Assembly: GCF_030547245.1 (NCBI RefSeq)
Contig: NZ_JAUOQT010000004.1
Span: 67,001-131,000 of the forward strand
DNA length: 64,000 nucleotides
Direction: 5' to 3'
Source: Oceanihabitans sp. 2_MG-2023
GTDB taxonomy: Bacteria; Bacteroidota; Bacteroidia; Flavobacteriales; Flavobacteriaceae
This document shows, one piece after another, positions 48,561-64,000 of this stretch (positions are counted from its first letter, which is position 1; every line of letters begins with the position of its first letter). The notes under the pieces were generated by a model. That model worked only from the letters and a program-made list of their open reading frames with translations. It was not told where the DNA came from and searched no databases. Both the position numbers and the translations under genes were made by a program.

Positions 48561-51500
48561 ATGAATATAAAAACAAACTTTAGTTTTTTAACAGATAGTT
48601 ATGTCGAATTGTTTCAATTGGCTTTATTAGCTGAACGTAATTCTTATGTAGATCCTAGTACTACTTTATCAAAACTTAGGATACTAACAGAAAAGTTAAC
48701 AAGTATTTTAATTGATTATGAACAATTAGAAGAGCCTTACGATAAAAAACAAATAAGCAGGTTAACTGTTTTAGCAAATAACTCAGATACACCTTCTGAG
48801 ATAATTTCTATTTTGCATACGATTAGAAAATCAGGAAATAAGGCTTCACATACAGGAGAAGGTACCCAAGCAGAAGCTAGATATATGCTGAGGCAAGCCT
48901 TTTATTTAACTAAATGGTTTGTAGAGGTTTACGAGAATCAAGACGTTTTTCAGGATTATGAAATGCCTAAAGAATCTTGGTTCGTAAACGATTCAAGAGC
49001 TCAGAAACTGGAAAAAGAACTAGAGCTACTTAAGAAAGAAGTTGGTGACTATAAGCAGAAAATAAAAGAGCAAACTCAAATTACTGAAGAAGCAAAACAA
49101 GAGCGTAAAATACGTGCTTTTGCTAAAGCTAAAAAAACAGAGGAAACTGAAGCGGAAACTAGAGATCGTATTGATAAACAATTACGTGATGCAGGTTGGG
49201 AATGTGACACACAGACTCTAAATTATAAATCTAAACAAACACTTCCACAAAAGGGAAAGCAAATGGCAATTGCCGAATGGAAGTGCGGAACAAAATGGGC
49301 AGATTATGCCTTGTTTAATGGTATAGAATTAATTGGAATTGTCGAAGCTAAAAAACACATTAAAAATGTAATGAGCGATTTAGGGCAAGCCAAAACCTAT
49401 AGTGAATTGGTAACTAATGACCACAATATTACGTTTCCTGATCATACCAATAATACAGCTTATAAAGTACCATTTATGTTTTCCACAAATGGAAGACCTT
49501 ATTTAGAGCAGTTTAAAACAGCTTCTGGTATTTGGTTTTGGGATGGTAGAGATCAGAAAAATTTAGCTAGACCTTTACCAAATTGGTTTTCACCACGAGA
49601 TTTGGTAGAAAAATTAAATTATGACGAAAATGAAGGTGTCGAAAAACTAGAAAAAACAGATTATGATTTATTATCTGACCCAAGCGGATTAAGTTTAAGA
49701 GAATATCAAATTGAAGCTATTAAGGCTGTTGAGCAAAAAATTCTTAACAATATAGAAGATAGACGCGCTTTGTTAGCTATGGCAACAGGAACTGGTAAAA
49801 CACGTACTATGATTGGTATGTGTTATCGTTTAATAAAGTCAGGAAGATTTAGACGTATTCTTTTTTTAGTAGATAGACGCATGTTAGGTAAACAAGCTTC
49901 AGATGCGTTTAAAGAAGTACATATAGAGGGATTGCAAACCTTTGCACAAATTTATGACCTTCAAGATTTAGAAGACAAAGCTTCAGAGTTAGATACAAAA
50001 ATACACTTTGCAACGGTTCAAGGTATGGTACAACGTATTGCGTATTCTGATGAATCGCCAAGCGTTGGAGATTACGATTGTATTGTGGTGGATGAAGCGC
50101 ACAGAGGGTATACTTTAGATAAAGAAATGGATGAAGAAGAATTTATCCTTCGAGACCAGCTTGACTTTCAGAGTAAATACAGAATGGTCTTAGATTATTT
50201 TGATGCGTATCGCATTGGTTTAACAGCAACACCTGCTATTCATACAAAAGAAATTTTTGGAGATCCTGTTTATATGTATTCGTATCGCCAAGCTGTTATA
50301 GAAGGGTATCTAATTGATTTTGAGCCGCCTTATGTATTTCAAACTACATTGTCTAAAGATGGTATTAAATGGGAGAAAGGGGATGAAGTTAAAATATACG
50401 ATCCAGAAGAAAACCAGATTAAAGATTTGGGAATTACTGAAGATGAAATTAAAGTTGAAATAACAGGTTTTAATCGCAAAGTCATTACCGAAAATTTTAA
50501 CCGTGTCGTGTTAAACGAGCTAATTTCTACTTATGGTATACTACCAGAAAACAAAGATAAAACTTTGATTTTTGCAGCAACAAATGCACATGCAGATACC
50601 ATTGTAAGATTGATATATGAAGAATTAGCAGAATTAGGAGAAGAGGCAGATCAAGATGCTATTGTTAAAATTACAGGTGAAGTTTATAATCGTGAAGATT
50701 TATTACGAAAATTTAAAAACGATCAATATCCAAGTATTGTAGTTACTGTAGATTTATTAACCACAGGAATAGATGTGCCAAGTATTTCTAATTTGGTGTT
50801 TCTACGTCGTGTTAACTCTCGTATATTATACGATCAAATGGTTGGTCGTGCCACAAGACGTTGTGATGTTATTGGTAAAGAAGTTTTTAAAATTTACGAT
50901 TGTGTTGGTGTTACTGAAATTATGGCTAAAGAACAGGTGATGAAACCTGTTGCGCCTTTAGTTACCAAGTCTTTTGCAAATTTGGTTGAAGAACTTTCTA
51001 TAATTGAAGACACGTATTCTAAAGAGGCTAAGCTAGATCGAGTTATAGCTAAAATACAGCGTAAGGTGTCTGGTTTTAGTGAAAAACAAAAACAACAATT
51101 TCAAACCCTTTCTGGTGAACCAACCGTTAGAGATTTTGCTAAAAAACTAAAAGCTATTGATATAGAAAATGTAAACCAATCTCTTGAAGATTATGGACAT
51201 TTATGGGAGTTTTTAGATAGAGAAAAAGGTAAAGCCTTAAATTATGGTACTTTATATAGTGACCATGAAGATAGGGTGGAAGAGGTGTCTCGTGCTTACG
51301 AGAAAAACCTTAAACCTAAAGATTATTTAGAGTCATTTACGGAGTATATCAATAACAACCGCAACCAAATTGCTGCATTAAACATTGTGTGTACTAAACC
51401 AAGTACATTATCACGTCATGATCTTAAAGAATTAAGGTTAATTCTAGATACCCAAGGTTTTAATAAAAACAACCTGAATACAGCATATAAAGAAGTAACT

Positions 51501-51809
51501 AATACAGAAATTGTTGCAGATATTATTGCTCATATACGCACCTCTGCTTTAGGAGAAGAATTAGTAAGTCACCATGAGCGTATTGCAAATGCAGTTTCTA
51601 AATTAAAATCAAGTCACAGCTGGAATCAAATTCAACTAAAATGGCTGGATAAAATAGAAGCACAATTGCAAAAAGAATCTATTATTACTTTAGAAGATTT
51701 AAACAAACCACCATTTAGCGTAGATGGAGGTTTAAAGCGTTTAGATAAAGTATTTAAAAATGAAACTGCAGAAATTATTAAGGAGTTAAACGAGTATTTG
51801 TACGCTTAA
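48561..51809 (+). CDS. hsdR: type I restriction endonuclease subunit R (HsdR) with DUF4145-like N-terminus
   Basis: About 1082 residues from ATG at 48561; an in-frame TTG at 48552 adds three. Residues 1-125 form a helical DUF4145-like domain, then a coiled coil (about 140-190). The nuclease domain has Asp248 (WADYAL) and Glu262-Ala-Lys264 (IVEAKK), a PD-(D/E)xK set. SF2 helicase: Walker A ATGTGKT (Lys413), DEAH at 511, GLTATP, and QMVGRATRR (motif VI). An EcoEI-type C-terminal domain follows. Translocates DNA and cleaves unmodified DNA together with HsdM and HsdS. hsdM and hsdS are 3.4 kb further on, separated by two DUF262 genes. Confidence 0.95.
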   Translation: MNIKTNFSFLTDSYVELFQLALLAERNSYVDPSTTLSKLRILTEKLTSILIDYEQLEEPYDKKQISRLTVLANNSDTPSEIISILHTIRKSGNKASHTGEGTQAEARYMLRQAFYLTKWFVEVYENQDVFQDYEMPKESWFVNDSRAQKLEKELELLKKEVGDYKQKIKEQTQITEEAKQERKIRAFAKAKKTEETEAETRDRIDKQLRDAGWECDTQTLNYKSKQTLPQKGKQMAIAEWKCGTKWADYALFNGIELIGIVEAKKHIKNVMSDLGQAKTYSELVTNDHNITFPDHTNNTAYKVPFMFSTNGRPYLEQFKTASGIWFWDGRDQKNLARPLPNWFSPRDLVEKLNYDENEGVEKLEKTDYDLLSDPSGLSLREYQIEAIKAVEQKILNNIEDRRALLAMATGTGKTRTMIGMCYRLIKSGRFRRILFLVDRRMLGKQASDAFKEVHIEGLQTFAQIYDLQDLEDKASELDTKIHFATVQGMVQRIAYSDESPSVGDYDCIVVDEAHRGYTLDKEMDEEEFILRDQLDFQSKYRMVLDYFDAYRIGLTATPAIHTKEIFGDPVYMYSYRQAVIEGYLIDFEPPYVFQTTLSKDGIKWEKGDEVKIYDPEENQIKDLGITEDEIKVEITGFNRKVITENFNRVVLNELISTYGILPENKDKTLIFAATNAHADTIVRLIYEELAELGEEADQDAIVKITGEVYNREDLLRKFKNDQYPSIVVTVDLLTTGIDVPSISNLVFLRRVNSRILYDQMVGRATRRCDVIGKEVFKIYDCVGVTEIMAKEQVMKPVAPLVTKSFANLVEELSIIEDTYSKEAKLDRVIAKIQRKVSGFSEKQKQQFQTLSGEPTVRDFAKKLKAIDIENVNQSLEDYGHLWEFLDREKGKALNYGTLYSDHEDRVEEVSRAYEKNLKPKDYLESFTEYINNNRNQIAALNIVCTKPSTLSRHDLKELRLILDTQGFNKNNLNTAYKEVTNTEIVADIIAHIRTSALGEELVSHHERIANAVSKLKSSHSWNQIQLKWLDKIEAQLQKESIITLEDLNKPPFSVDGGLKRLDKVFKNETAEIIKELNEYLYA

Positions 51810-51833
51810 TAATAAACAATTTAAAATTATTTA

Positions 51834-53297
51834 ATGGCAGAGGCTATAATTGAAAATATAGAACAAATTGAGGTTTTAAAACATACATTAAAACCTAAAG
51901 TCAAGACTGTAAAAGAAATTTTATATAATCAAGATTTAAAAATACCAGAATATCAAAGACCTTATAAATGGCAACCAAAAAATGTAAAACAATTATTAGA
52001 AGATATTGTTTTACATCAAAAAAAATCAGCTTACAGAATTGGTACAGCTGTTATGCATAAAGACAAGAAGGAATTAAATATTGTAGATGGACAACAACGT
52101 ATAGTTACTCTTACTCTAATTGCACATGCTCTGCTTCATAATGATTCAACAAAATATTTTGCTGAAAAATATGGAGGAGATAGTAAGCTCAAGCTACTTT
52201 CAGAATCTATGGATAATGATATATCAAAAGCAAATGTTATTATTAACTATAAAGAAATTGAAAGAGAGATAAAAAGTTTTACGGAAGATGAAGTTCGTTT
52301 CTTTTTTACAAAATGTGAATTGGTATGCATAACCTTGTCTAGTATTTCTGAAGCCTTTCAGTTTTTCGATTCTCAAAATGCAAGAGGAAAAGATTTAGAT
52401 CCTCACGATTTATTAAAAGCTTTTCACTTACGTGAAATGTCTAGTTTTTCAGAAAAAGAAAGACAGCAATGTATCGAAGAATGGGAAAGTAAAAATGACG
52501 ATGAACTGCACGAAGTTTTTTCACAATATTTATTTAGGATTCGTAGATGGTCTAAACGTAAAAATGGACGCTATTTAAACAAAACCAATGCTAATACCTT
52601 TAAAGGGGTTACTTTAGATAAAACACAAGATTTTCCATACATCTATCCTCTAAAGATTAATAATGTTTTTACAGATGAGTTTAATCAACATCTCCATAGA
52701 AAGATAGATAATAACACAAAACTTTATCCTTTTCAAATAGACCAAGTAGTTCTTAATGGACAACGTTTTTTTGAAATGATTAATTTTTATCAAGAAAAAA
52801 TAAAACAAATTAAAGGAACGCATAGTGCAAAATACTTTAATAAAGAAGAGAAAAAATGGGTGTATGATGAAGATTTTTTTCTTGGTAAGCTTCAATTTCT
52901 TTCTATTAGTTCTAAAACCAGTATTTCTTTTAAAGTTTTTAAAACCTTAGCTACGTATGAAGGACGTAATAGATCTGGAGATCAATATGTAAGAACCCTT
53001 TTTGATTGTGCACTACTTTATTATACCGATAAATTTGGGAATCAAGATCTAGACAGAGTAATTACCAAACTGTTTATTTGGGCATATAGATTGCGCTTAG
53101 ATTCGCAGGCAGTGCAACTGGCTTCTGTAGATAACCATGCTAGAGAATGGAGCAGTATGTTTTCTGTTATTAGAGAAGCAACACAACCAAAGGAAGTTTA
53201 CCAAATGTATTTAGAAAGTTTAAATGCCATAAGGTCTTCAAAAACCGAAAAATTAAAAGAGTTATTTAAATCTTTAAACTATTACCATGGCGAATAA
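51834..53297 (+). CDS. DUF262 domain protein without recognised HNH end
   Basis: 487 residues. The N-terminal DUF262 (ParB-like/DndB-like NTP-binding) has KIPEYQRPYKW at 36-46 and catalytic-type DGQQR at 85-89; NARGKDLDPHDLLKAFHLRE is the family middle motif. The C-terminal half is helical and I see no DUF1524 HNH signature. It resembles the DUF262 partner of two-part GmrS/GmrD-like modification-dependent enzymes. It begins 24 bp after hsdR and overlaps the next DUF262 gene by 11 bases, so the two probably form a complex. Role is inferred. Confidence 0.85.
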   Translation: MAEAIIENIEQIEVLKHTLKPKVKTVKEILYNQDLKIPEYQRPYKWQPKNVKQLLEDIVLHQKKSAYRIGTAVMHKDKKELNIVDGQQRIVTLTLIAHALLHNDSTKYFAEKYGGDSKLKLLSESMDNDISKANVIINYKEIEREIKSFTEDEVRFFFTKCELVCITLSSISEAFQFFDSQNARGKDLDPHDLLKAFHLREMSSFSEKERQQCIEEWESKNDDELHEVFSQYLFRIRRWSKRKNGRYLNKTNANTFKGVTLDKTQDFPYIYPLKINNVFTDEFNQHLHRKIDNNTKLYPFQIDQVVLNGQRFFEMINFYQEKIKQIKGTHSAKYFNKEEKKWVYDEDFFLGKLQFLSISSKTSISFKVFKTLATYEGRNRSGDQYVRTLFDCALLYYTDKFGNQDLDRVITKLFIWAYRLRLDSQAVQLASVDNHAREWSSMFSVIREATQPKEVYQMYLESLNAIRSSKTEKLKELFKSLNYYHGE

Positions 53298-55221
53298 TTT
53301 AGTAGAATTAAATATCGAAGAGGTATTCTCAAACAATACCTATGCAATTCCAATATATCAACGCAATTATGCTTGGAAAGAAGCACAAATAAAACAGCTT
53401 ATTCAAGATGTTTATGACTATGCTAAATATGATAAAACAACTACACAAAAGTATTATATAGGTAGTTTAGTGGTTTTTGAGCGTAAAACGGAAGACGGAA
53501 TTGTTTATGAAACAATTGATGGTCAGCAACGTTTAACAACGCTAAACATCTTGTTTTCGATTTTAAAAAATGAATTTGATATTCATATTAATAACTATAA
53601 AACAAATCTTCATTTTGATAGTAGACCTATGTCTTCTTATACTTTAGAGCACCTTTATAATAAGACTAAAAAGGAAGATGTAAACAAGTCAGAAAAAAAA
53701 TTAAATGTTAGAATTACTGATGCCTATACCATTGCTAAAAAGGAATTAAATAAGATAAAAAAGGCCAATCATTTAGAACAGTTTGTTAATTATTTAAAGG
53801 CAAATGTTATTATTTTAAGGGTTCCTGTACCTAAGGATACAGATTTAAATCATTATTTCGAGATAATGAATAATCGTGGAGAACAGTTAGAAAAACATGA
53901 AGTCTTAAAAGCTAAAATGCTAAAGGTCTTTAGTAAAGAAAAAAAGGAAAGCCACGTTTTTAATACCATTTGGGAAGCCTCTGCTAATATGGAGAAATAT
54001 GTTCAACATGGTTTTAATACAGAGGTACGTTCTGCTCTTTTTGGTAAAGATTGGAATCATTTTGAAGCAGAAGTTTTTGAAGATGTTATCACTAGTTTTA
54101 GCACTAAAATTAAGGTAGATAATACTGCATTAACTATAGAGGCTTTATTAAAAGATAAACAGCAAATAGAAATAAATAAGGAAGAGGAAGATGATGCTCC
54201 AGAACGCTTTAATTCTGTAATAAACTTTTCTAATTTCTTATTACATATTTTAAGAATATTGGTTAATAGTAATCCTAATTATGAATTGCTTTCTGAGGAT
54301 AAAAAAAATATTCCTTTAGACGATAAAAGGCTAATGGAAACTTTTGATTTTTTCTTAAACGTAGAAGACAAAAACAAGAAAAAAGCATTTGTGAAAGACT
54401 TTGCTTTTCTGTTATTAAAAGGAAAACACTACTACGACAAGTACATCATTAAACGTAATTTAAAAGATGATAAATGGAGTTTAAAATACCTTAAAGTAGA
54501 ATATTATAATAAAAAAGCATCGCATCAATATATAAACAGTTTAGGTACTAATAATAAGTCAATTTTAATGTTATTATCAATGTTTCATGTGTCTGCACCA
54601 ACTTTAATCTATAAACATTGGTTAAATGCTGCCTTAAATTATGTGCTAGATGATGGTAAAGACAGAATAGATGGAGAAGATTATATCTGCTATTTAGAAG
54701 ATTTAAGCGATGCGTATTTATACGATCGTTTTCTTGCTAAACAAGAAAATGATTACTTTAATATAATTTATATAAATGATGCTTATTCTACTGCAAATAT
54801 GGATGACTTAGATAAAACTAAACTAAATCAAGGTACAAGCGTAGAGAATTTTATATTTAACAGATTAGATTATTTACTTTGGAAACAAGATCAAGAAAAA
54901 GAAAATAAACAATTTTCCGATTTTAGTTTTTCTTTCCGTACCTCTGTAGAACATTACTATCCTCAAAATCCAATGGAAGGACAAGAAAGGTTAGACACTA
55001 GTGCTTTAGATAGTTTTGGAAATTTATGCTTAATAAGTAGAAATAAAAACTCTAAATTAAGTAACTACATGCCAACTGCTAAAAAAGAACATTATGCAAA
55101 ACGAGGTAGTATAGAAAGCATAAAACAACAAATTATGATGCAAGAAAAGCATTGGCAGGAAATTGAAATTGAGCAACACGCAGAAAAAATGACAAAAATA
55201 CTTTTAACAACAAGAAAATAA
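53287..55221 (+). CDS. DUF262 plus DUF1524 (HNH) domain nuclease, GmrSD-like
   Basis: 644 residues. DUF262 with IPIYQRNYAW (21-30), YYIGSLVV and DGQQRLTTLN from residue 78. FEIMNNRGEQLEKHEVLKAKM is the middle signature. The C-terminal DUF1524 nuclease has VEHYYPQNP (His556) and LDSFGNLCLISRNKNSKLSN, the His...Asn...Lys pattern of this HNH group, here EHYYPQ rather than the common xHIxPQ. GmrSD and BrxU relatives cut modified phage DNA using NTP. It ends one base before hsdM starts. Confidence 0.88.
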   Translation: MANNLVELNIEEVFSNNTYAIPIYQRNYAWKEAQIKQLIQDVYDYAKYDKTTTQKYYIGSLVVFERKTEDGIVYETIDGQQRLTTLNILFSILKNEFDIHINNYKTNLHFDSRPMSSYTLEHLYNKTKKEDVNKSEKKLNVRITDAYTIAKKELNKIKKANHLEQFVNYLKANVIILRVPVPKDTDLNHYFEIMNNRGEQLEKHEVLKAKMLKVFSKEKKESHVFNTIWEASANMEKYVQHGFNTEVRSALFGKDWNHFEAEVFEDVITSFSTKIKVDNTALTIEALLKDKQQIEINKEEEDDAPERFNSVINFSNFLLHILRILVNSNPNYELLSEDKKNIPLDDKRLMETFDFFLNVEDKNKKKAFVKDFAFLLLKGKHYYDKYIIKRNLKDDKWSLKYLKVEYYNKKASHQYINSLGTNNKSILMLLSMFHVSAPTLIYKHWLNAALNYVLDDGKDRIDGEDYICYLEDLSDAYLYDRFLAKQENDYFNIIYINDAYSTANMDDLDKTKLNQGTSVENFIFNRLDYLLWKQDQEKENKQFSDFSFSFRTSVEHYYPQNPMEGQERLDTSALDSFGNLCLISRNKNSKLSNYMPTAKKEHYAKRGSIESIKQQIMMQEKHWQEIEIEQHAEKMTKILLTTRK

Positions 55222-56625
55222 ATGGCATTAACAACCCAAGAAATAGTAAACAAACTCTGGAACCTTTGTAACGTATTACGAGATGATGGTATCACCTACC
55301 ACCAATACCTAAACGAGCTCACCTTTATTCTGTTCCTTAAAATGGCAGAAGAAACGGACTATAACGATAAGCTACCAGAAGGCTACCGTTGGGAAGACCT
55401 AAAACAAAAAGAAGGCGTAGAACTCGCCACCTTTTACCGTCAGTTACTATTAAAATTAGGAACGGAAAGCACAGGCAATATTCAGAAAATATACAACAAC
55501 GCACAAACTAGTATACAAGAACCAGCCAACTTACGTAAAATTATAAAGCACATCGACGAGCTCGATTGGTTTGAAGCCAAAGACGAAGGTCTAGGCGAAA
55601 TGTACGAAGGCTTGTTAGAAAAAAATGCGAGTGAAAAAAAATCTGGAGCAGGACAATATTTTACACCGCGACCATTAATTAACGTGATGGTACGTTTAAT
55701 GGAACCTAAAGTAGGCGAGCGCCTTAACGATCCTGCCTGTGGAACCTATGGGTTTATGATTGCCGCACACCATTATATTTTAAAACATAACGATATTTAC
55801 ACACTCGGCGATGCCGAAAACAACCACTTACAAACCGAGCAATACAGTGGTTGCGAGTTGGTAGGCGATACCCATCGTTTAGCCATGATGAATGCTTTTT
55901 TACATGGTATGGGCGGAAACATTGCTCTAGGCGATTCTTTAAGTAGTTATGGTGAAAGCATTAAAAACATGGACTTAGTCCTGGCAAACCCACCATTTGG
56001 AACTAAAAAAGGTGGCGACCGACCAACCAGAACCGACTTAGTCTATCCAACCTCAAACAAGCAACTCAACTTTTTACAAGGTATTTACCGCAGTTTACAC
56101 ACACGTGGTGGCGCACGTGCAGCAGTAGTTTTACCAGATAATGTATTGTTTGAAGATGGCGACGGACAAAACGTACGTAAAGACCTCATGGAAAAATGCA
56201 ACCTACACACCATTTTGCGTTTGCCAACCGGTATTTTTTACGCCGCAGGTGTAAAAACCAACGTGTTATTCTTTGAGCGTGGTACCGCAGATAAAGCCAA
56301 TACCAAAAACGTGTGGTTTTACGATATGCGTACCAATATGCCCAACTTTGGAAAGCGCACGCCATTTACCGAAAGCTATTTTGCCGATTTTGAAAAAGCC
56401 TACACCGCCAATGATCGCAACAAAATTAAAGACGAACGTTTTAGCTGCATAACTAGAGAAACTATTGCCAAAAAGAACGACTCTTTAGATTTAGGATTAA
56501 TAGCAGACGATAGCATTACCAAAGCCGAAGACATTGGCGAACCTATAGATATTGCTAAAGAAGCTTTAACCGAATTAACCAGCATTACCAAGGAGTTGAA
56601 TGCCATAATTAAAGCGTTAAACTAG
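55222..56625 (+). CDS. hsdM: type I restriction-modification DNA methyltransferase HsdM
   Basis: 467 residues, N6-adenine methyltransferase. N-terminal HsdM helices (VNKLWNLCNVLRDDGITYHQYL) precede SAM motif I at 170-178, DPACGTYGF, where the usual second Gly of GTGGF is Tyr176. Catalytic motif IV is LANPPFGTKKGGD (Asn256-Phe259), and VLPDNVLFEDGDG and LRLPTGIFYAAGVKTNVLFF are conserved. Visibly GC-richer than its neighbours. Start is immediately after the preceding stop, and hsdS begins directly at the end. Confidence 0.95.
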   Translation: MALTTQEIVNKLWNLCNVLRDDGITYHQYLNELTFILFLKMAEETDYNDKLPEGYRWEDLKQKEGVELATFYRQLLLKLGTESTGNIQKIYNNAQTSIQEPANLRKIIKHIDELDWFEAKDEGLGEMYEGLLEKNASEKKSGAGQYFTPRPLINVMVRLMEPKVGERLNDPACGTYGFMIAAHHYILKHNDIYTLGDAENNHLQTEQYSGCELVGDTHRLAMMNAFLHGMGGNIALGDSLSSYGESIKNMDLVLANPPFGTKKGGDRPTRTDLVYPTSNKQLNFLQGIYRSLHTRGGARAAVVLPDNVLFEDGDGQNVRKDLMEKCNLHTILRLPTGIFYAAGVKTNVLFFERGTADKANTKNVWFYDMRTNMPNFGKRTPFTESYFADFEKAYTANDRNKIKDERFSCITRETIAKKNDSLDLGLIADDSITKAEDIGEPIDIAKEALTELTSITKELNAIIKALN

Positions 56626-58053
56626 ATGGAGAATAAATTGCCAAAGAATTGGGTTGAAACTGAATTTAAAGAGCTTACAGCTTTTGTTATTGGTGGAGAT
56701 TGGGGAAAAGATTTAGAATTTGAATTTGATGTTGATTCTGAAATTGTTTCTTGCATTAGAGGAAGCGAAATAAAAAATTGGGAACGAGATAAGGGAAGTA
56801 CAGCTTCGATAAGAAAAATTAAATCAGCAAGTTTAGAAAAAAGAGCTTTAGTTGAAGGGGATATTTTATTAGAAATCTCAGGAGGAGGACCAGATCAGCC
56901 AGTTGGACGAACAATTTATATAGATGAAGAAGCTTTAGATGTAAATATTGATTGTAAAAAAGTCTGTACTAACTTTTTAAGAATGGTTCGACTTTATGAT
57001 AATTTAGATAAGAAATTTATCAAGCATTATTTGGATTCTTTTTATTTGTCTGGAGAAATTCTGAAATATCAAGGAGGAAGTAACAATCTAAGAAATTTAA
57101 AATACAAGGAATTTGAAACTATTAAAATCCCACTTCCACCACTAGCAGAACAACAACGCATTGTTACCAAGTTAGACGAGTTATTTGGGCATCTAGACAG
57201 TCTTAAAACCCGTTTAAACCACATCCCACAAATCCTTAAAAACTTTAGACAAGCGGTGTTAACCCAAGCGGTAACAGGTAAGATTACTGAGGAATGGCGT
57301 GGTTCGAAATCTGTAAAAGTAGTTTCGCCAATTACGATTGGTGACGAGTTTCAGGAAAAACCAAAAAAATGGGTCTGGAGTAATTTGATAGATCTTGCAA
57401 AATTGGAATCGGGGCATACACCAAGGAAAAGTAAGGAAGAATATTGGATTAATGGTAATGTTCCTTGGATTTCATTACAAGATATTCGAGCTGCACACGG
57501 AACAGTAATAAGTGATACAAAGTTTAAACCAAACATGGTGGGGATTAATAATTCTAGTGCCAGATTACTTCCTAAAGGAACGGTATGCTTTTCACGCGAT
57601 ATCTCTGTAGGTTTTACTACAATTATGGGTAAGGAGATGGCAACAACTCAACATTTTGCGAATTGGATTTGTAAAGAAAAGTTATACAATAAATATTTAT
57701 TATACGCTTTTATTTCTGCAAAAGATTATTTAATAGCTTCAGGTAAAGGAACTACAGTCAAAACTATTTATATGCCAGCTTTAAAACAGTTTAGGCTTTT
57801 ACTTCCACCAATAGAAGAACAAACCGAAATCGTAAAACGCGTAGAACATTTATTTGCTAAAGCAGATGCTATAGAAGCACAATACCAAACTCTAAAAACA
57901 AAAATAGATAGTTTGCCACAAGCTATTTTAGCCAAAGCCTTTAAAGGCGAGTTGGTTGAGCAGTTGGAGAGTGATGGTAGTGCTGAGGTTTTGTTGGAGG
58001 AGATACAGAAGTTGAAGGCAGAGTTGAAGCCTGTTAAGAAAACAAAGAAATAA
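56626..58053 (+). CDS. hsdS: type I restriction-modification specificity subunit HsdS
   Basis: 475 residues. Two target-recognition domains (about 1-165 and 235-385) with central and C-terminal conserved helices: PLPPLAEQQRIVTKLDELF then HLDSLKTRLNHIPQILKNF, and LLPPIEEQTEIVKRVEHLF then KADAIEAQYQTLKTKIDSL. These hold two HsdM and set the two half-sites. DNA for the recognition domains is AT-rich; DNA for the conserved helices is richer in G+C, like hsdM, a mosaic pattern. Target sequence cannot be predicted. Confidence 0.94.
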   Translation: MENKLPKNWVETEFKELTAFVIGGDWGKDLEFEFDVDSEIVSCIRGSEIKNWERDKGSTASIRKIKSASLEKRALVEGDILLEISGGGPDQPVGRTIYIDEEALDVNIDCKKVCTNFLRMVRLYDNLDKKFIKHYLDSFYLSGEILKYQGGSNNLRNLKYKEFETIKIPLPPLAEQQRIVTKLDELFGHLDSLKTRLNHIPQILKNFRQAVLTQAVTGKITEEWRGSKSVKVVSPITIGDEFQEKPKKWVWSNLIDLAKLESGHTPRKSKEEYWINGNVPWISLQDIRAAHGTVISDTKFKPNMVGINNSSARLLPKGTVCFSRDISVGFTTIMGKEMATTQHFANWICKEKLYNKYLLYAFISAKDYLIASGKGTTVKTIYMPALKQFRLLLPPIEEQTEIVKRVEHLFAKADAIEAQYQTLKTKIDSLPQAILAKAFKGELVEQLESDGSAEVLLEEIQKLKAELKPVKKTKK

Positions 58054-58056
58054 TTT

Positions 58057-60450
58057 ATGAGATTAGCGGCAGTATATATATTAGAGCATTATCTTTTTGA
58101 CGAACCTCAAGTTATAAATTTGGTTGGAAATTATTTCTATAGTATTAACCACGAATATGAAAAAATAACCATTAATAGAATTAAGAATGATAAATATGTT
58201 TATAATTTACATTCTAATAATATCAATGAGTTATCTGCAATAGTAGGAGCTAATGGTAGTGGCAAAACAACACTTTTTTCAATAATTAATAAAAACCGCG
58301 ATACAACAAGAGCAATTTTTATTTATGAGAATAGAAATGGTGAAATAAAAATAGTAAATAGAACAGGAAAGTTAAACGAAAATGGTGATTTTACTGAAAC
58401 ACATCAGGTTGCTGTATACTTTGAAAAGCTTAGGGTTAATTCTGTTCCAAATATTGACATCCCTGTATTATATTTTTCCCCTATTCCTGATGAAGATTTA
58501 AGTGATTTTAGTTCATCAATTTCAAAAACTTCACATTTTAAGTCTACCTTAATTGAATATCATCTAGATAATATTGAGCGCTCTACTATGTTAATGACGG
58601 ATGATATTGTAGATGAGATAAAAAAAGTTTATCCAGAATTACCTTTATATAATTATTTGAGCTTGTCAGCTAAACCTTTATACAAAAGAGATTTAAGGAA
58701 TACACATGGTGGATTTAAAGTTACTGGTTCTATCGAAAAAACTCAGAAAGAAGCCTTTGAGAAATTATGGGAAAGTTACCCATCTAGTAATAAAGATAAA
58801 GAACATTTAACTCACGATAGCTCTAATTTTTTTAAAAATATAGAAGTCAATATTTTATCTTATTTAATAATTGATGCAACTTCAACGGAAACTGCGTTTA
58901 ATGGATTTCATAATATTAGCTATTTTGATATCATAAAAGAAGATAATTTTTTAGTAAAATTAAAACAACTTTTTTTTCATAAGATTGCGCATATTGATAA
59001 GTATATATACTATCATTTAAAGGAGGCAATGGTGAATGATGATTATCATATATTGCTTTTTCATTTTGAGACTACAAATTTTGATGAAATTCTAAAAGAT
59101 AAGCAGAATATATTAATGAAGTCAATTGAAAGTTTGAAACCTTTTTTAGAAGGAAATGAAATAGAAAATTTCAGAGTTGAACTTAATAGAAGGATTGAGG
59201 GGGTGATTAATGAAGAATTAAAAGGGAATGAATTTGAAAATTTAAGAGATAATTTAGTAAAATTTAGTGAATATATTAATGCATTAATTGAAAGTGGAAA
59301 TGATGATTTACTAAAGCGAATTAAAAATAGCCTTAAAGAAGTGGAAATTGGTATAGGTATGTCCTTCGATACAATCTATAATGCGAGATATGAAATTATT
59401 GACCAATTAAAGGGAGGGGTTCAAAAGGCTATTAAACTCTTTACTGCTATACAGAGCTTTTATATTGTAGCCACCGAGTTTGCAAAAAAAGATGGTGCAG
59501 AGCTAATTAATGGCAAATTAAATATCAATCTAAGAATAATAGATTTTGCAGATTTTAAAAAGTTAATGCAAAATTACAGAATGGTTTTAGAAGAGTTTAA
59601 TGGCAATTCTTTAATCAATGCGCAAATTCTTGAATTCAGGCCAGATAAAAGATTTTCATATGGTGAAAAGTCCTTACTGAATTTGTTTAGCAGTTTTTAT
59701 GAATTTACAATTAGAAAGCATCACTATTTAAGAAGAAAAGAAAACTACATTTTATTATTAGATGAAGCTGATTTAGGATTTCATCCTTTATGGAAAAAGA
59801 GATTTGTTAGTGCAATCACTAAAGTTATACCTGTGATTTTTGAGAGATTGAACATAGATATTGATAATTCAAAACATCCAGAATTAAATACAAGAAAAAT
59901 TCAAATTATAATTTCTACACATGATCCATTAACGCTATCAGATATTCCAAATTATAATATTGTTTATATAGATCGTATCGATAATGATAAATCCAATGTT
60001 ATACATCTGCTAAATGATAATTCTAAACCAAAACAATCTTTTGGCGCCAACGTTCACGACTTACTTGCACACAGCTTTTTTTTAAAAGATGGCTTTATCG
60101 GTGAATTTGCAAAAGAAAAAATCCAGCAGGTATTAGATAATTTGAGCTTCATCATTTTAAGCAAAGAGATAGAAGAATTACGGAGTAATTCAGAGGATTT
60201 AAATAAGGATTTGATAAAAGCTAAACAAGAATATCATAGTGATTTAGAAGGAAAGTTTTTATATAAAGAAAAACAGTATTTAAAATCTATAATCGACATA
60301 GTAGATGAGCCTATTTTAAAGTATAAGATGGATGAAATGTATTATCAAGCTTTTCCTAATGAAATAGATAAGAATGAGGCCATAAAAAGAGCAAAGAGGA
60401 TTCTTGGTGATGCAGGTTTAAATATTAAGGATTTAAATGAAGATAGCTAA
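58057..60450 (+). CDS. AAA/ABC-type ATPase (Septu PtuA-like)
   Basis: 797 residues. Walker A IVGANGSGKTT (62-72), ABC-like signature SYGEKSLLNLFSSF near 533, Walker B YILLLDEADLGFHP near 565-577 and His loop IIISTHDPLTLSDI near 617: an SMC/RecF-type ATPase split by a long helical insertion. No TOPRIM domain follows, so it is not an OLD-type nuclease. It starts 3 bp after hsdS, and its stop overlaps the start of the HNH gene by one base. ATPase plus HNH neighbour is the Septu (PtuA/PtuB) layout; similarity to PtuA proper is not proven. Confidence 0.85.
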   Translation: MRLAAVYILEHYLFDEPQVINLVGNYFYSINHEYEKITINRIKNDKYVYNLHSNNINELSAIVGANGSGKTTLFSIINKNRDTTRAIFIYENRNGEIKIVNRTGKLNENGDFTETHQVAVYFEKLRVNSVPNIDIPVLYFSPIPDEDLSDFSSSISKTSHFKSTLIEYHLDNIERSTMLMTDDIVDEIKKVYPELPLYNYLSLSAKPLYKRDLRNTHGGFKVTGSIEKTQKEAFEKLWESYPSSNKDKEHLTHDSSNFFKNIEVNILSYLIIDATSTETAFNGFHNISYFDIIKEDNFLVKLKQLFFHKIAHIDKYIYYHLKEAMVNDDYHILLFHFETTNFDEILKDKQNILMKSIESLKPFLEGNEIENFRVELNRRIEGVINEELKGNEFENLRDNLVKFSEYINALIESGNDDLLKRIKNSLKEVEIGIGMSFDTIYNARYEIIDQLKGGVQKAIKLFTAIQSFYIVATEFAKKDGAELINGKLNINLRIIDFADFKKLMQNYRMVLEEFNGNSLINAQILEFRPDKRFSYGEKSLLNLFSSFYEFTIRKHHYLRRKENYILLLDEADLGFHPLWKKRFVSAITKVIPVIFERLNIDIDNSKHPELNTRKIQIIISTHDPLTLSDIPNYNIVYIDRIDNDKSNVIHLLNDNSKPKQSFGANVHDLLAHSFFLKDGFIGEFAKEKIQQVLDNLSFIILSKEIEELRSNSEDLNKDLIKAKQEYHSDLEGKFLYKEKQYLKSIIDIVDEPILKYKMDEMYYQAFPNEIDKNEAIKRAKRILGDAGLNIKDLNEDS

Positions 60451-61457
60451 TGATTTATTTAGGTGATCAAATAGATGCTTTAAATGCCTATAGTAAAGAG
60501 GCTGTATGCTGGTTAGGTGTAAAGCTTAAAGGCAGATTAACTACGTCAAATAGTCATGGTTATAGTTGTGGAGATTCAGCTTGTTACCCATGTAATCATA
60601 GTAATATTAGAAGTAAGATAAATCAAGGCTTTAGAGATCTATTTACAGATGCTACCATTAAGGAATTAATAGAAGCAAAACCTCACAGGCTTATTGAAAT
60701 TAATAATAGTCTACAAACAAAATTTATTGCAGCCACAGGTAGAACAGTTAAAGATTTTAAAGCTAATGCAAAAAAACTATGTCTTATTTCAGGATTTACA
60801 GGCTGGTTTTCTAAAGATGAAACGGTAGGAGAAAAGTGGAATTACCGATTAGCACGTCTGTTGGATAAACACACTTGTACGTATTGTAACAGAGAATATG
60901 TTTTTGTTTATAGAAACCCATCTGGCAGTGGTAAAGGCATGGTGCCACAGTTTGATCACTGGTTTGCAAAAACAGATTATCCTCTTTTGGCTATTTCATT
61001 TTACAATCTAATTCCATCATGTGCCACTTGCAATACCATTAAATCATCAACGGATTTAAACTTAACAGATCATTTACATCCTTACGTAGATTCAAATATT
61101 TCAAGCACCTATGAATTTAGCTATTTGCCTATTACAAACATAGATAATAGAATAATACTTAAAAACAGCTCTTTGTTTAATAGTAAAGGATTAGATACAG
61201 TGAACGCGCTCAATTTACCTTTAATATATAAAGGGCATTCAGGCAAAGAGTTACAAGATTTAATTGATTTGAGGTATAAATATTCTGATAATTATCTCAA
61301 TATACTTTTGGAAGATACTTTTGGAGATTTACAAATATCAAAAGAAGAACGTTATAGGCTAATTTTTGGAATTGAGTTAGATGAAGAAAATCATCACAAA
61401 CGCATATTTAGCAAGTTTAAAGGAGATATTATTAGTGAACTTTTATCAATAAAATAG
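60450..61457 (+). CDS. HNH endonuclease (Septu PtuB-like)
   Basis: 335 residues. HNH core: CTYC (143-146), QFDHWFAK (Asp169-His170), ISFYNLIPSC (Asn186), CATCNTIK (191-198), a treble-clef zinc nuclease like PtuB. An additional Cys/His cluster, C40-x4-C45-x2-C48-x-H50 in YSCGDSACYPCNH, lies in the N-terminal extension and could be a second zinc or nucleic-acid site. TAATG overlap with the ATPase gene implies coupled translation and a complex. Nuclease acting on foreign DNA or RNA by inference. Confidence 0.85.
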   Translation: MIYLGDQIDALNAYSKEAVCWLGVKLKGRLTTSNSHGYSCGDSACYPCNHSNIRSKINQGFRDLFTDATIKELIEAKPHRLIEINNSLQTKFIAATGRTVKDFKANAKKLCLISGFTGWFSKDETVGEKWNYRLARLLDKHTCTYCNREYVFVYRNPSGSGKGMVPQFDHWFAKTDYPLLAISFYNLIPSCATCNTIKSSTDLNLTDHLHPYVDSNISSTYEFSYLPITNIDNRIILKNSSLFNSKGLDTVNALNLPLIYKGHSGKELQDLIDLRYKYSDNYLNILLEDTFGDLQISKEERYRLIFGIELDEENHHKRIFSKFKGDIISELLSIK

Positions 61458-61472
61458 AATACGATATGTCTT

Positions 61473-61976
61473 ATGAATAACCAAAGAAAACAACTATGTC
61501 TTAACTATTTAAAAGCAAGACAAGATTTTTTAGAAGTAGCGAATAAAGATGAGGTATTACATGGTAATGATAATATTATTGGAAGAATAGGAGAAGCTAT
61601 TTCGTATTCCTTTTTAGAGCAAATGGGAAGAAGACCTAAAGTTGTAAAAAATCAATCTAATAAAGGTTATGATATTATTTGTGAACATGACAACGCTAGA
61701 ATATCAGTTAAAATGATTACATCGGAAAACGAAGGTGGTTATACCTCTAAAATTAATCATAAATGGGATGAGTTAATTGGTATAGAGTTAGGAGATAATT
61801 TAAAAGTTAAAAATTTTGGACTGATAACCAAAGACGCTTTTGTAGAAGAGCAAAAAAGAAAAAACCAAAGTTTAGAACCAAGGTTTAGTAGAAATATGTT
61901 TAAAGAAAATGGTTTGTTTGCTTTAGCAGGAACATTGTTTCCAATAGAGCAAATTGAAAAGTATAATTTAATATAA
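61473..61976 (+). CDS. nuclease-like protein of unknown family
   Basis: 167 residues, no signal peptide. NIIGRIGEAISYSFLEQMG (Glu41) then SNKGYDIIC (Asp67) and ARISVKMIT (Ser78-Val-Lys80) follow the order of a PD-(D/E)xK core with Ser in place of the second acidic residue, E...D...SVK. The C-terminal part (from WDELIGIELG) is predicted alpha/beta. It lies 16 bp after the HNH gene and 7 bp before the next gene. A third nuclease of the island is an inference from motif order only. Confidence 0.6.
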   Translation: MNNQRKQLCLNYLKARQDFLEVANKDEVLHGNDNIIGRIGEAISYSFLEQMGRRPKVVKNQSNKGYDIICEHDNARISVKMITSENEGGYTSKINHKWDELIGIELGDNLKVKNFGLITKDAFVEEQKRKNQSLEPRFSRNMFKENGLFALAGTLFPIEQIEKYNLI

Positions 61977-61982
61977 AGCACT

Positions 61983-62282
61983 ATGGTGGCACGTGTAAAA
62001 GTAGATGGTAATTATTTAGAAACGCTAGATGAAAAAGGTCGGAGAATTAAACGAGCGTATTGTAAGGCTGATTTTTTAGGCAACTCTAGTGATATTGTGG
62101 TAGTTAAAGATGGTAATTATATAGAGGTTTTAAATGCAGACTTAAAAAGATTATCGCGTAGCTACATAAAAGCAGACCAATTTTTGGCTGTTTCTGGAGA
62201 CACTTTTTCTATTCAAAATGGAAACTATGCAGAAACGTATGATGCTAAAGGAAAACGAATCAGTAGAAATTATTCAAAATAA
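61983..62282 (+). CDS. small protein with three internal repeats, unknown function
   Basis: 99 residues made almost wholly of three copies of a 35-36 residue unit: VDGNYLETLDEKGRRIKRAY, KDGNYIEVLNADLKRLSRSY and QNGNYAETYDAKGKRISRNY (the last copy truncated). Each unit starts with a GNY strand and a D/NxxxKR turn followed by KAD, so a beta-propeller or solenoid-like stack is plausible. No signal peptide. It sits 3 bp before the KAP NTPase gene and is presumably co-translated. No family recognised. Confidence 0.75.
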   Translation: MVARVKVDGNYLETLDEKGRRIKRAYCKADFLGNSSDIVVVKDGNYIEVLNADLKRLSRSYIKADQFLAVSGDTFSIQNGNYAETYDAKGKRISRNYSK

Positions 62283-62285
62283 AGA

Positions 62286-64000
62286 ATGAGTACATCCAGT
62301 ATTATAGACGTGCCTAAAAAAGCACAAGATAAAGATCAATTAGGTATAGATGCCTACAAAAACGGTTTAACAGGTTTTATAAATACAGCGCAAACACCAC
62401 TCACTATTGCCATACAAGGAGAATGGGGTAGTGGGAAAACTTCACTAATGAATGCTATAAGGCATGATTTGTGTGAAAATGAAAATAGCTTTTTTGGTAT
62501 TTGGATAAACACTTGGGAATATTCGTTGCTTACAGACGAGTATACCACGATGACGAATATTATTCAAGGTATTATTTCTTCGGTTATACAGGTTTTGGAA
62601 AAGGATAAGAACCAAAACCTAGAAGATTTAAAGAAAAAAGCTGTTGGCTTTTTTAAAGCCGCAGCACGTAGTGCCGCAAAAATGGGAGCTAATGCAGCAA
62701 CCGCTGGTATTGCAGGAGATGCTACCGATGCTTTTTTTGAAGCTGCAGATAAACAATCGTCTTTGCGCGAGTTACACACCGAGTTACAGAAGCAAATTAA
62801 CCAAACTATTGAGCACAATGAGAACGCCAAAGGGTTCTTGTTTTTTATAGATGATTTAGATCGTATCAATCCACCTGTAGCAGTGCAAATACTAGAGCTG
62901 CTAAAAAATATCTTCGATTTAGAGAATTGTATTTTTATGTTAGCCATAGATTATGATGTGGTTGTTAAAGGTTTGGAACCAAAATTTGGTAAAAAAACAG
63001 CTGAGAATGAACGCGAGTTTCGATCTTTCTTTGAAAAAATTATCCAGTTACCTTTTACCATGCCTATTGGTCAATATCGTGTTAACGATTTAATTATTGA
63101 TAATTTAAAGCAACTGCAATATTTTAACGAAGGGGAGCTTACACCAGATATTTCAGATGTTATTGTAGATATTAGTAATCTTACCGTGGGTTCTAATCCA
63201 AGGGCTATTAAGCGTTTACTAAACAGTTTATCTTTAGTACGAAGTATTATGATTGCTGTAGAGAAAGATAGTAAGCCTTCAGCCTTTGAGCAGCTTATAA
63301 ATATAGGTGTCTTTAGCATTCAAATTGCATACCCTTTAATCTTTAAAGTATTAGAACGGTTTCCAGATTTTACGGCTTGGAATGATGAGGTTGTGGAAAC
63401 CTTTAAGTTAAAAACTATAGACGCTAGTTTAAAAGAAAAACTGTCGCAGAATGAATATTTTGATGAAGAGTGGGAACAGGTGTTGTATCAATTGTGTCAG
63501 CGCGAAACGTTTTTAAGTAATCGCGCAATGCAAATTTCTAGGCTTTTTAACACCTTAAAAAATCGTATAGAACTCAATGCTACCAATGTTTCTAATGATA
63601 CGGATCAGACCGAATCACAGGATGTTACTTTACTAGATGTAATGACTAATGCCATTCAAATAGCATCCGTTACTAGTTATGATAACAATATTGAAGAGCC
63701 AAAGGCAAAAGAAATACATAAATCTGGATTTTTAAAAGGTTTAAGAGAACGCATTAAAAATAATTTAATGCAACAAGCGGCATCTAAAAATATAGAGATT
63801 CTATACCAACAAAAGGCTGTGAAATCTAACTTGACTTTCTTGATACAAAAAGGAAAACACAGGTATCGTTTAGATTTCTCGGTGCATACCAGTGCTAAAG
63901 AATATAGTATACTAGCACGTTACGGTAGTTGGTATTTTGTAAAAGCCATACATAACGATTTTTACAAAAACCTAGAAGAGCCCGAAGCAAAGGAATTAAA
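62286..64000 (+). CDS. KAP family P-loop NTPase, partial
   Basis: The ATG at 62286 opens a frame that runs past the window end (571 codons visible). Walker A is GEWGSGKTS (45-53). A hydrophobic Ala/Gly-rich insert (about 119-150) may be the membrane hairpin known in KAP NTPases. Walker B GFLFFIDDLDRINPPVAVQ (Asp189, Asp190) and NLTVGSNPRAIKRLLNS (sensor/arginine region) follow. KAP proteins occur in phage-defence and membrane-associated systems. The C-terminus and next genes are unseen, so length and partners remain open. Confidence 0.88.
   Translation, partial: MSTSSIIDVPKKAQDKDQLGIDAYKNGLTGFINTAQTPLTIAIQGEWGSGKTSLMNAIRHDLCENENSFFGIWINTWEYSLLTDEYTTMTNIIQGIISSVIQVLEKDKNQNLEDLKKKAVGFFKAAARSAAKMGANAATAGIAGDATDAFFEAADKQSSLRELHTELQKQINQTIEHNENAKGFLFFIDDLDRINPPVAVQILELLKNIFDLENCIFMLAIDYDVVVKGLEPKFGKKTAENEREFRSFFEKIIQLPFTMPIGQYRVNDLIIDNLKQLQYFNEGELTPDISDVIVDISNLTVGSNPRAIKRLLNSLSLVRSIMIAVEKDSKPSAFEQLINIGVFSIQIAYPLIFKVLERFPDFTAWNDEVVETFKLKTIDASLKEKLSQNEYFDEEWEQVLYQLCQRETFLSNRAMQISRLFNTLKNRIELNATNVSNDTDQTESQDVTLLDVMTNAIQIASVTSYDNNIEEPKAKEIHKSGFLKGLRERIKNNLMQQAASKNIEILYQQKAVKSNLTFLIQKGKHRYRLDFSVHTSAKEYSILARYGSWYFVKAIHNDFYKNLEEPEAKEL

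What the first reader, a model, noticed from the sequence alone, without database searches (positions are those of the whole stretch)
48561..64000. Composite co-directional defence island
From hsdR to the KAP NTPase, ten genes run in one direction with gaps of 0-24 bp or overlaps. Type I restriction, a GmrSD-like pair, an ATPase/HNH pair, a nuclease-like protein, a repeat protein and a KAP NTPase may act as one multi-layer unit. The exact combination is one I do not recognise as a named system.
Basis: partly seen in the sequence, partly recalled or inferred. Interest (0 to 1): 0.7.

Follow-up and report, generated by a model that had tools for sequence, protein, structure and literature searches.

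The report
Type I restriction operon stacking defences
A marine bacterium's DNA-restriction operon carries, in one run of ten genes, several separately swappable anti-virus modules, most of a known kind, plus a small-protein/ATPase pair that keeps turning up with dissimilar restriction systems and whose role is unknown.

Summary
In detail: ten same-strand genes, hsdR to a KAP NTPase, with gaps of at most 24 bp; a terminator-like hairpin follows the KAP gene just past the window. Best reading: a type I restriction-modification operon carrying separable cargo, not one machine. (1) The GmrSD-like pair is TgvAB-type, a published two-protein type IV restriction system known to nest in type I operons. 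(2) The ATPase/HNH pair matches the Septu-like candidate PDC-M62. (3) A 167-aa protein, possibly a nuclease, was found in four loci, all TgvAB-bearing. (4) The 99-aa repeat protein and KAP NTPase recur as a pair in 7 genomes, 5 times in type I operons of differing kinds. The 99-aa protein is confidently predicted all-beta; among the 50 listed PDB matches only Helicobacter IceA2, itself encoded beside a DNA methylase, fits over its whole length. My searches found no description of this pair. Relatives show cassette exchange: against a genome of another genus TgvAB is about 99% identical at DNA level while hsdR is mostly 71-91%. That genome keeps the whole order with a Zorya II insert; in two other relatives everything after the 167-aa gene differs.

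The parts
48561..51809 (+). hsdR, type I restriction subunit
   Evidence: Pfam EcoEI_R_C, ResIII; NCBIfam NF008521 1275.6 bits against cut-off 729
51834..53297 (+). tgvA-like: GmrSD_N (DUF262) + DUF7834, no nuclease domain
   Evidence: Pfam; QR, DGQQR, FxxxN kept in 18 of 18 aligned homologues
53287..55221 (+). tgvB-like: GmrSD_N + GmrSD_C (DUF1524) nuclease
   Evidence: Pfam; DGQQR and H556/N579/N588 kept in 18 of 18
55222..56625 (+). hsdM, type I methyltransferase
   Evidence: Pfam N6_Mtase, HsdM_N; DPACG and NPPF motifs
56626..58053 (+). hsdS, specificity subunit
   Evidence: Pfam Methylase_S, two stretches
58057..60450 (+). AAA ATPase, PDC-M62A, Septu-like
   Evidence: PADLOC PDC-M62A E 6.5e-48 over residues 335-717; Walker A at 64
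60450..61457 (+). HNH protein, PDC-M62B, Septu-like
   Evidence: PADLOC PDC-M62B E 2.3e-46; no Pfam hit; CxxC, DHW, NxIPSC motifs
61473..61976 (+). g8, 167 aa, possible PD-(D/E)XK nuclease
   Evidence: Orphan, no family at E<=1; 4 homologous loci; model poor
61983..62282 (+). g9, 99-aa all-beta repeat protein, IceA2-like fold
   Evidence: AlphaFold pLDDT 93.6; IceA2 TM 0.72/0.75; directly before KAP in 7 loci
62286..64000 (+). KAP P-loop NTPase; continues to C25:131247, hairpin after it
   Evidence: Pfam KAP_NTPase E 1.3e-38; whole ORF 653 aa; hairpin

Best explanation
A Flavobacteriaceae type I R-M operon used as a common expression unit for stacked defence modules. HsdRMS methylates the host and cuts unmethylated DNA. 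The TgvAB-type pair between hsdR and hsdM most likely cuts phage DNA with hypermodified cytosines, which escapes type I enzymes. The AAA/HNH pair is most likely a Septu-like effector in which the ATPase controls the nuclease. The last two genes are a pair: the 99-aa beta protein most likely serves as sensor or adaptor of the KAP NTPase, the effector. Transcription probably ends at the hairpin after KAP. Cargo is exchanged by recombination in the conserved hsd genes. Shown: gene content, motifs, spacing, hairpin, recurrence, mosaic identity. Inferred: co-transcription, targets, sensor and effector roles, and that g9-KAP defends at all.
For: Tight spacing and end hairpin. TgvAB motifs 18 of 18; 12 of 17 TgvAB-pair loci outside the window are nested in or beside a full hsd set, 1 more beside hsdR only. 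Published TgvAB needs both proteins and acts on Tevenvirinae (PMC11411939). Mosaic identity. PDC-M62 models. g9 directly before KAP in 7 of 10 KAP loci, 5 of the 7 in type I operons. Order kept in G322.
Against: No RNA data; promoter scans uninformative. 4 of 17 TgvAB loci show no hsd gene. No clear hairpin after KAP in G322, G312 or G011. In G1109 KAP is only 36% identical while g9 is 64%, and G100's KAP has no g9. g9 has no sequence link to IceA2.
Confidence: 0.72

Rival explanations
1. One integrated machine: the ten products work together, for instance HsdRMS loading or licensing the other nucleases and the NTPase.
For: Tight spacing; order kept in another genus; g9-KAP found in five type I operons.
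Against: Parts occur apart. Published TgvAB works without hsd genes, though 10- to 100-fold less well alone; the loss was not due to HsdR cutting (PMC11411939).
Confidence: 0.08
2. Mere defence-island hitchhiking: the genes are neighbours by chance of a hotspot and are transcribed separately.
For: Genes after g8 differ in L008 and G006; next to the flank gene g16 another genome (G004) holds a different hsd cluster.
Against: Overlapping or 0-24 bp junctions without room for promoters; g9-KAP lies at start, middle or end of differing type I operons.
Confidence: 0.17
3. g9-KAP regulates or services the R-M genes (expression, assembly, control of damage by HsdR) rather than acting on phage.
For: 5 of 7 g9-KAP loci are in type I operons. 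In Helicobacter iceA subtype is reported to correlate with transcription of the neighbouring methylase gene (PMC13340068, passages).
Against: KAP matches PADLOC PifA, PDC-S20 and QatA models; a PDDEXK_4 nuclease gene adjoins the pair in G312, G011 and G1109; G016 and G1109 have the pair with no hsd gene seen.
Confidence: 0.25

Closest known systems
TgvAB nested in the VPI-2 type I cluster of Vibrio cholerae (PMC11411939)
   Same: Two adjacent DUF262 proteins, the second with DUF1524; same motifs; nested among hsd genes.
   Different: There the pair is flanked by other hsd genes in a five-gene operon; here it lies between hsdR and hsdM and five more genes follow hsdS. An E. coli plasmid homologue has M-S-A-B-R order.
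Septu (PtuAB) / PADLOC candidate PDC-M62
   Same: ATPase followed by HNH protein; PDC-M62A/B models match. In the Bacillus cereus group 203 PDC-M62 calls coincided with Septu calls of a second tool (PMC11811056, passages).
   Different: Far below NCBIfam's PtuA cut-off (28 of 500 bits); ATPase 797 aa.
DarTG2 embedded in a type I operon of E. coli (PMC12255303)
   Same: A second defence embedded between hsd genes of one island.
   Different: Other cargo, one module, has its own repressor RptR (passages).
KAP-NTPase defence proteins PifA, QatA, PDC-S20
   Same: KAP P-loop domain.
   Different: Match limited mostly to the NTPase domain; no QatB-D beside it; here a 99-aa beta partner precedes it.
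Helicobacter pylori IceA2 (PDB 7xfp)
   Same: Small all-beta protein of like size and fold (TM 0.72/0.75), also encoded beside a DNA methylase gene.
   Different: No sequence similarity found; no KAP partner known to me (recalled). The IceA2 structure paper did not appear in the 12 of 15 papers listed and was not read.

Membership tests
Type I restriction-modification | HsdR, HsdM and HsdS encoded together with intact domains | tested here: met
   motor and methylase motifs. The HsdR nuclease motif was missed by my narrow pattern; seen by eye as D..EAK
Type I restriction-modification | Active methylation and restriction | not testable with these tools
   Needs methylome data and plating
TgvAB | Two adjacent DUF262 proteins, only the second with DUF1524 | tested here: met
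TgvAB | QR, DGQQR, FxxxN in both; H..N..N in the second | tested here: met
   18 of 18 pairs
TgvAB | Acts on hypermodified cytosine phages, both proteins needed | not testable with these tools
   Known for the Vibrio pair only; direct comparison with the Vibrio sequence not made
Septu / PDC-M62 | PtuA equivalog score | tested here: not met
   28.1 bits, cut-off 500
Septu / PDC-M62 | PDC-M62A and PDC-M62B matched by adjacent genes | tested here: met
   E 6.5e-48 and 2.3e-46
Qat | QatA equivalog score | tested here: not met
   82.3 bits, cut-off 600, KAP part in the window only
Qat | QatB, QatC, QatD alongside | tested here: not met
   Neighbours have no such match in the families listed; PADLOC lists for genes 4-7 were capped at 25
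PifA | Full-length similarity | tested here: inconclusive
   E 2.1e-36 over profile 6-316 of 720 only
IceA2 | Fold | tested here: met
   TM 0.72/0.75, E 3.0e-3, predicted model
IceA2 | Sequence homology | tested here: not met
   Profile search at E<=10 does not list 7xfp
Beta-flower (PF21784-PF21786) | Pfam match | tested here: not met
   g9 none at E<=1; the 121-aa protein of G186 18 bits against 38
PD-(D/E)XK nuclease (g8) | Fold and D..(D/E)xK motif | tested here: inconclusive
   pLDDT 55.7; Foldseek best E 2.9e-3, TM 0.33; E41, D67, SVK80 kept in 4 of 4 but S in place of E

The most novel reading that the evidence does not exclude
g9-KAP is an undescribed two-gene anti-phage system: an IceA2-like beta protein senses infection and switches a KAP NTPase effector, and it is repeatedly recruited into type I R-M operons of differing kinds (start, middle or end), often with a PDDEXK_4 nuclease gene. 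It would give the orphan IceA2, itself encoded beside a DNA methylase, a first functional context: an adaptor of restriction-linked defence.
Probability: 0.35. Interest if true: 0.65.

Novelty: new variant of a known kind. Interest (0 to 1): 0.45.

Why it matters
It shows a type I operon serving as a platform with several cargo slots and with sequence-level footprints of cassette exchange. It also singles out a compact, testable gene pair (99-aa beta protein plus KAP NTPase) tied to restriction systems, and offers a lead on what IceA2-like proteins do.

Tried and rejected
Sigma-70 scan: no signal over shuffles. Bacteroidota promoter pattern (recalled): no signal. g8 as DUF6998, because G314 has a DUF6998 gene in the same place: hhalign probability 1.7%, E 0.029, on a profile of only 4 near-identical rows, so not accepted but not excluded. 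g8 structure: too weak to rely on. g9 as a Pfam beta-flower: no hit. g9 fold in viral models: best hits are local WD/BTB-type matches, none of the 50 listed above TM 0.5 by both lengths. g9 and KAP in viral contigs: no relative confirmed (short peptide patterns only). KAP in plasmids at E<=1e-40, g9 in phages and plasmids at E<=0.01: no match. PDB sequence searches for HNH, TgvA, ATPase and KAP: none within limits; TgvB matched one DUF262 entry, 9jfl, E 1.8e-14; g8's weak hits (best E 0.28) are taken as chance. Hairpin with T run after KAP: also in G016 (-19.3 kcal/mol), not convincing in G322 and G312, none in G011.

Paper searches; each shows at most 12-20 of the papers found (12 of 1,222). 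In those listings I saw no account of a KAP NTPase with a small repeat partner in type I operons; PDC-S20 by name had no hit. The library lacks most subscription papers and bioRxiv, so this is no proof of absence. The Payne et al. preprint on embedded defences was seen only as a reference entry. Papers seen: PMC11411939 (abstract and passages); PMC4619093, PMC11811056, PMC12255303, PMC10584680, PMC13340068 (passages).

Rows dropped: G080 (broken TgvAB pair at a contig end) and G767 (single GmrSD protein) left out of the motif count; G767 also left out of the 17 TgvAB loci, G080 kept there as 'no hsd seen'. Four hsdM loci at 44-48% identity (G137, G334, G312, G239) left out of the ten same-kind loci. 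The two G186 KAP loci are one genome. L008 starts inside hsdR.
Full report
OBSERVATION. Ten co-directional ORFs from hsdR (48561) to a KAP NTPase (62286 on) are present as described. Junctions are 24, -11, 0, 0, 3, -1, 15, 6 and 3 bp. The KAP gene runs past the window and ends at C25:131247; it is 653 aa. It is followed by a hairpin with a T run (-13.7 kcal/mol, 0 of 200 shuffles as good), 170 bp without an ORF of the list, then another five-gene run: 110 aa, a UPF1-like helicase, 356 aa, a PLD protein and an RtcR-like CARF/AAA protein. Upstream, msrB lies on the other strand.

HOST. A same-genus genome (G006) has a contig of the same length, with g8 at the same place, as Oceanihabitans sediminis S9-10, so this is a Flavobacteriaceae relative of that organism (family recalled).

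TGVAB. Genes 2 and 3 both have the GmrSD N-terminal (DUF262) domain; only gene 3 has the C-terminal (DUF1524) nuclease. QR, DGQQR and FxxxN are kept in both, and H556/N579/N588 in gene 3, in 18 of 18 aligned pairs (the window's, 16 from relatives, one from an E. coli plasmid). This is the make-up of TgvAB, shown by others to be a two-protein, modification-dependent type IV system nested in a type I operon, needing both proteins and stopping Tevenvirinae with hypermodified cytosines (PMC11411939, abstract and passages). That GmrSD homologues favour type I loci was noted earlier (PMC4619093, passages). Here 11 of 397 family genomes match gene 2 at E <= 1e-20 and 7 of 395 phylum genomes match DUF7834 at E <= 1e-5, own genome included in both. 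Of 17 TgvAB-pair loci outside the window (two of them found through g8), 10 lie between hsd genes, 2 beside a full hsd set, 1 beside an hsdR only, and 4 have no hsd gene in the fetched stretch. The hsdM proteins of these systems are 22-96% identical to the window's over the aligned parts.

SLOTS AND SWAPPING. Ten loci hold an hsdM at least 59% identical to this one, the window included. Between hsdR and hsdM there is TgvAB in 4, other ORFs in 2 (G278, G421) and no ORF of 90 aa or more in 4. After hsdS, both AAA and HNH are matched in 5 of 10 and HNH only in 1 (G278). g8 is in the 4 TgvAB loci and, by similarity, in none of the other 6; but two of the four (L008, G006) were found through g8, so this link is partly by selection. 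Nucleotide profiles in 150-base blocks show recombination footprints. Against G322, TgvAB is 97-100% identical in every block but one (91%), while hsdR is 71-91% over most of its length, rising to 93-97% at its 3' end, and hsdM is 86-94%. Against G006, TgvAB is 54-79% while hsdR and hsdM are 72-89%. Against L008 the contrast is weak. hsdS shows exchange of its two variable regions in G322 and L008, of one in G006. So TgvAB moves as a two-gene cassette; that hsd sequence supplies the recombination arms is inference.

AAA-HNH AND G8. Genes 6 and 7 match PADLOC PDC-M62A/B (E 6.5e-48 and 2.3e-46) and more weakly Septu PtuA/PtuB, far under NCBIfam's PtuA cut-off. Gene 8 is an orphan: 2 of 60 relatives (own included), 1 of 395 order genomes (own only), 2 loci of genome contigs (one of them G006 again), and G322: four loci in all. 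Its model is poor. The best Foldseek hits are the PD-(D/E)XK restriction enzymes NhoI, DpnI and Eco15I, at TM about 0.3, which act on methylated DNA by their titles or by recall. I treat it as a possible nuclease only.

G9-KAP. KAP homologues at E <= 1e-60 occur in 7 of 299 family genomes (8 loci, own included). Genus searches around three of them added two: G1104 (2 of 5 genomes, G312 again the other) and G1109 (2 of 16, G016 again the other); the genus of G011 held only G011. Of these 10 loci, g9 lies directly upstream of KAP in 7: window, G322, G312, G016, G011, G1104, G1109. A different small repeat protein precedes KAP in 2 (both G186), with a GmrSD-like gene after it. G100 has neither. 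Of the 7, five are in type I operons: at the end (window, G322, G312), between hsdS and hsdR (G011), and at the start (G1104). In the three new ones R, M and S are confirmed by Pfam: the R subunit has an EcoEI-type C-terminus in G312 and G1104, as in the window, and an EcoR124-type one in G011. Their hsdM proteins are 42, 25 and 29% identical to the window's; G322's is 96%. G016 is at a contig end with no hsd gene seen, and G1109 shows none in 20 kb. A PDDEXK_4 nuclease gene adjoins the pair in G312, G011 and G1109 and lies nearby on the other strand in G016. Pairwise identities of g9 and KAP rank together (Spearman 0.66 over 21 non-independent pairs), but in G1109 KAP is far more diverged (36%) than g9 (64%), which counts against strict co-evolution. 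I made no random-gene control for the closeness to type I genes.

G9 FOLD. A five-sequence alignment gave a confident model: pLDDT 93.6, 11 strands. Foldseek's best PDB E-values are local matches to beta-propellers. Among the 50 rows listed of 1,217, the only target matched with TM above 0.5 by both lengths is Helicobacter pylori IceA2 (7xfp, TM 0.72/0.75, E 3.0e-3). A sequence link was not found at E <= 10, so descent is unproven. The beta-flower fold (96 residues, ten short strands; PMC10584680, passages) is the other candidate; no Pfam beta-flower model hits g9, and the small protein of G186 hits one under its cut-off. iceA lies next to the methylase gene hpyIM (PMC13340068, passages), which makes the shared restriction context notable.

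SECOND COPY OF THE ORDER. G322, another genus, keeps hsdR-tgvA-tgvB-hsdM-hsdS-AAA-HNH-g8, then ZorA2-ZorB2-ZorE2, then g9-KAP. Its AAA and HNH are only about 36 and 35% identical over the matched parts. In the other two g8-bearing relatives (L008, G006) the genes after g8 differ, and G006 lacks AAA-HNH.

VERDICT. A type I R-M operon stacking separable defence modules, most of known kinds, with one undescribed module candidate (g9-KAP). I rate it a new variant of a known kind.

Noticed in passing
L002:2419-9730 (C25:131418-138729, just right of the window): A second five-gene same-strand run: 110 aa, a UPF1-like helicase (best PADLOC match MkoA), 356 aa without family, a PLD protein (DrmC-like, weak MkoB) and an RtcR-like CARF/AAA sigma-54-type protein; a possible Mokosh-like set under its own regulator.
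   Followed up: no
L002:9800-10600 (-), L008:15484-16284, L093:18729-19529: The flank gene g16 (266 aa) stands right of the defence genes in the window and in L008 (79%), and in G004 (95%) beside a different hsd cluster: a likely insertion hotspot.
   Followed up: partly
L069:1690-4416: A Zorya type II set (ZorA2, ZorB2, ZorE2) lies inside the G322 version of the operon, between g8 and g9.
   Followed up: partly
L097:8411-12546 and L107:7950-12085: In G186, in two copies, a 121-aa repeat protein with a sub-threshold beta-flower hit precedes KAP, and a GmrSD-like gene follows.
   Followed up: partly
plasmids collection, hits: TgvA homologues (under 60% identity) are on 891 plasmid records, 854 of them Klebsiella; I read the context of three other hosts only.
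   Followed up: no
L026:10166-13369: In G080 both TgvAB genes are split into pieces near a contig end, apparently a decaying copy.
   Followed up: no
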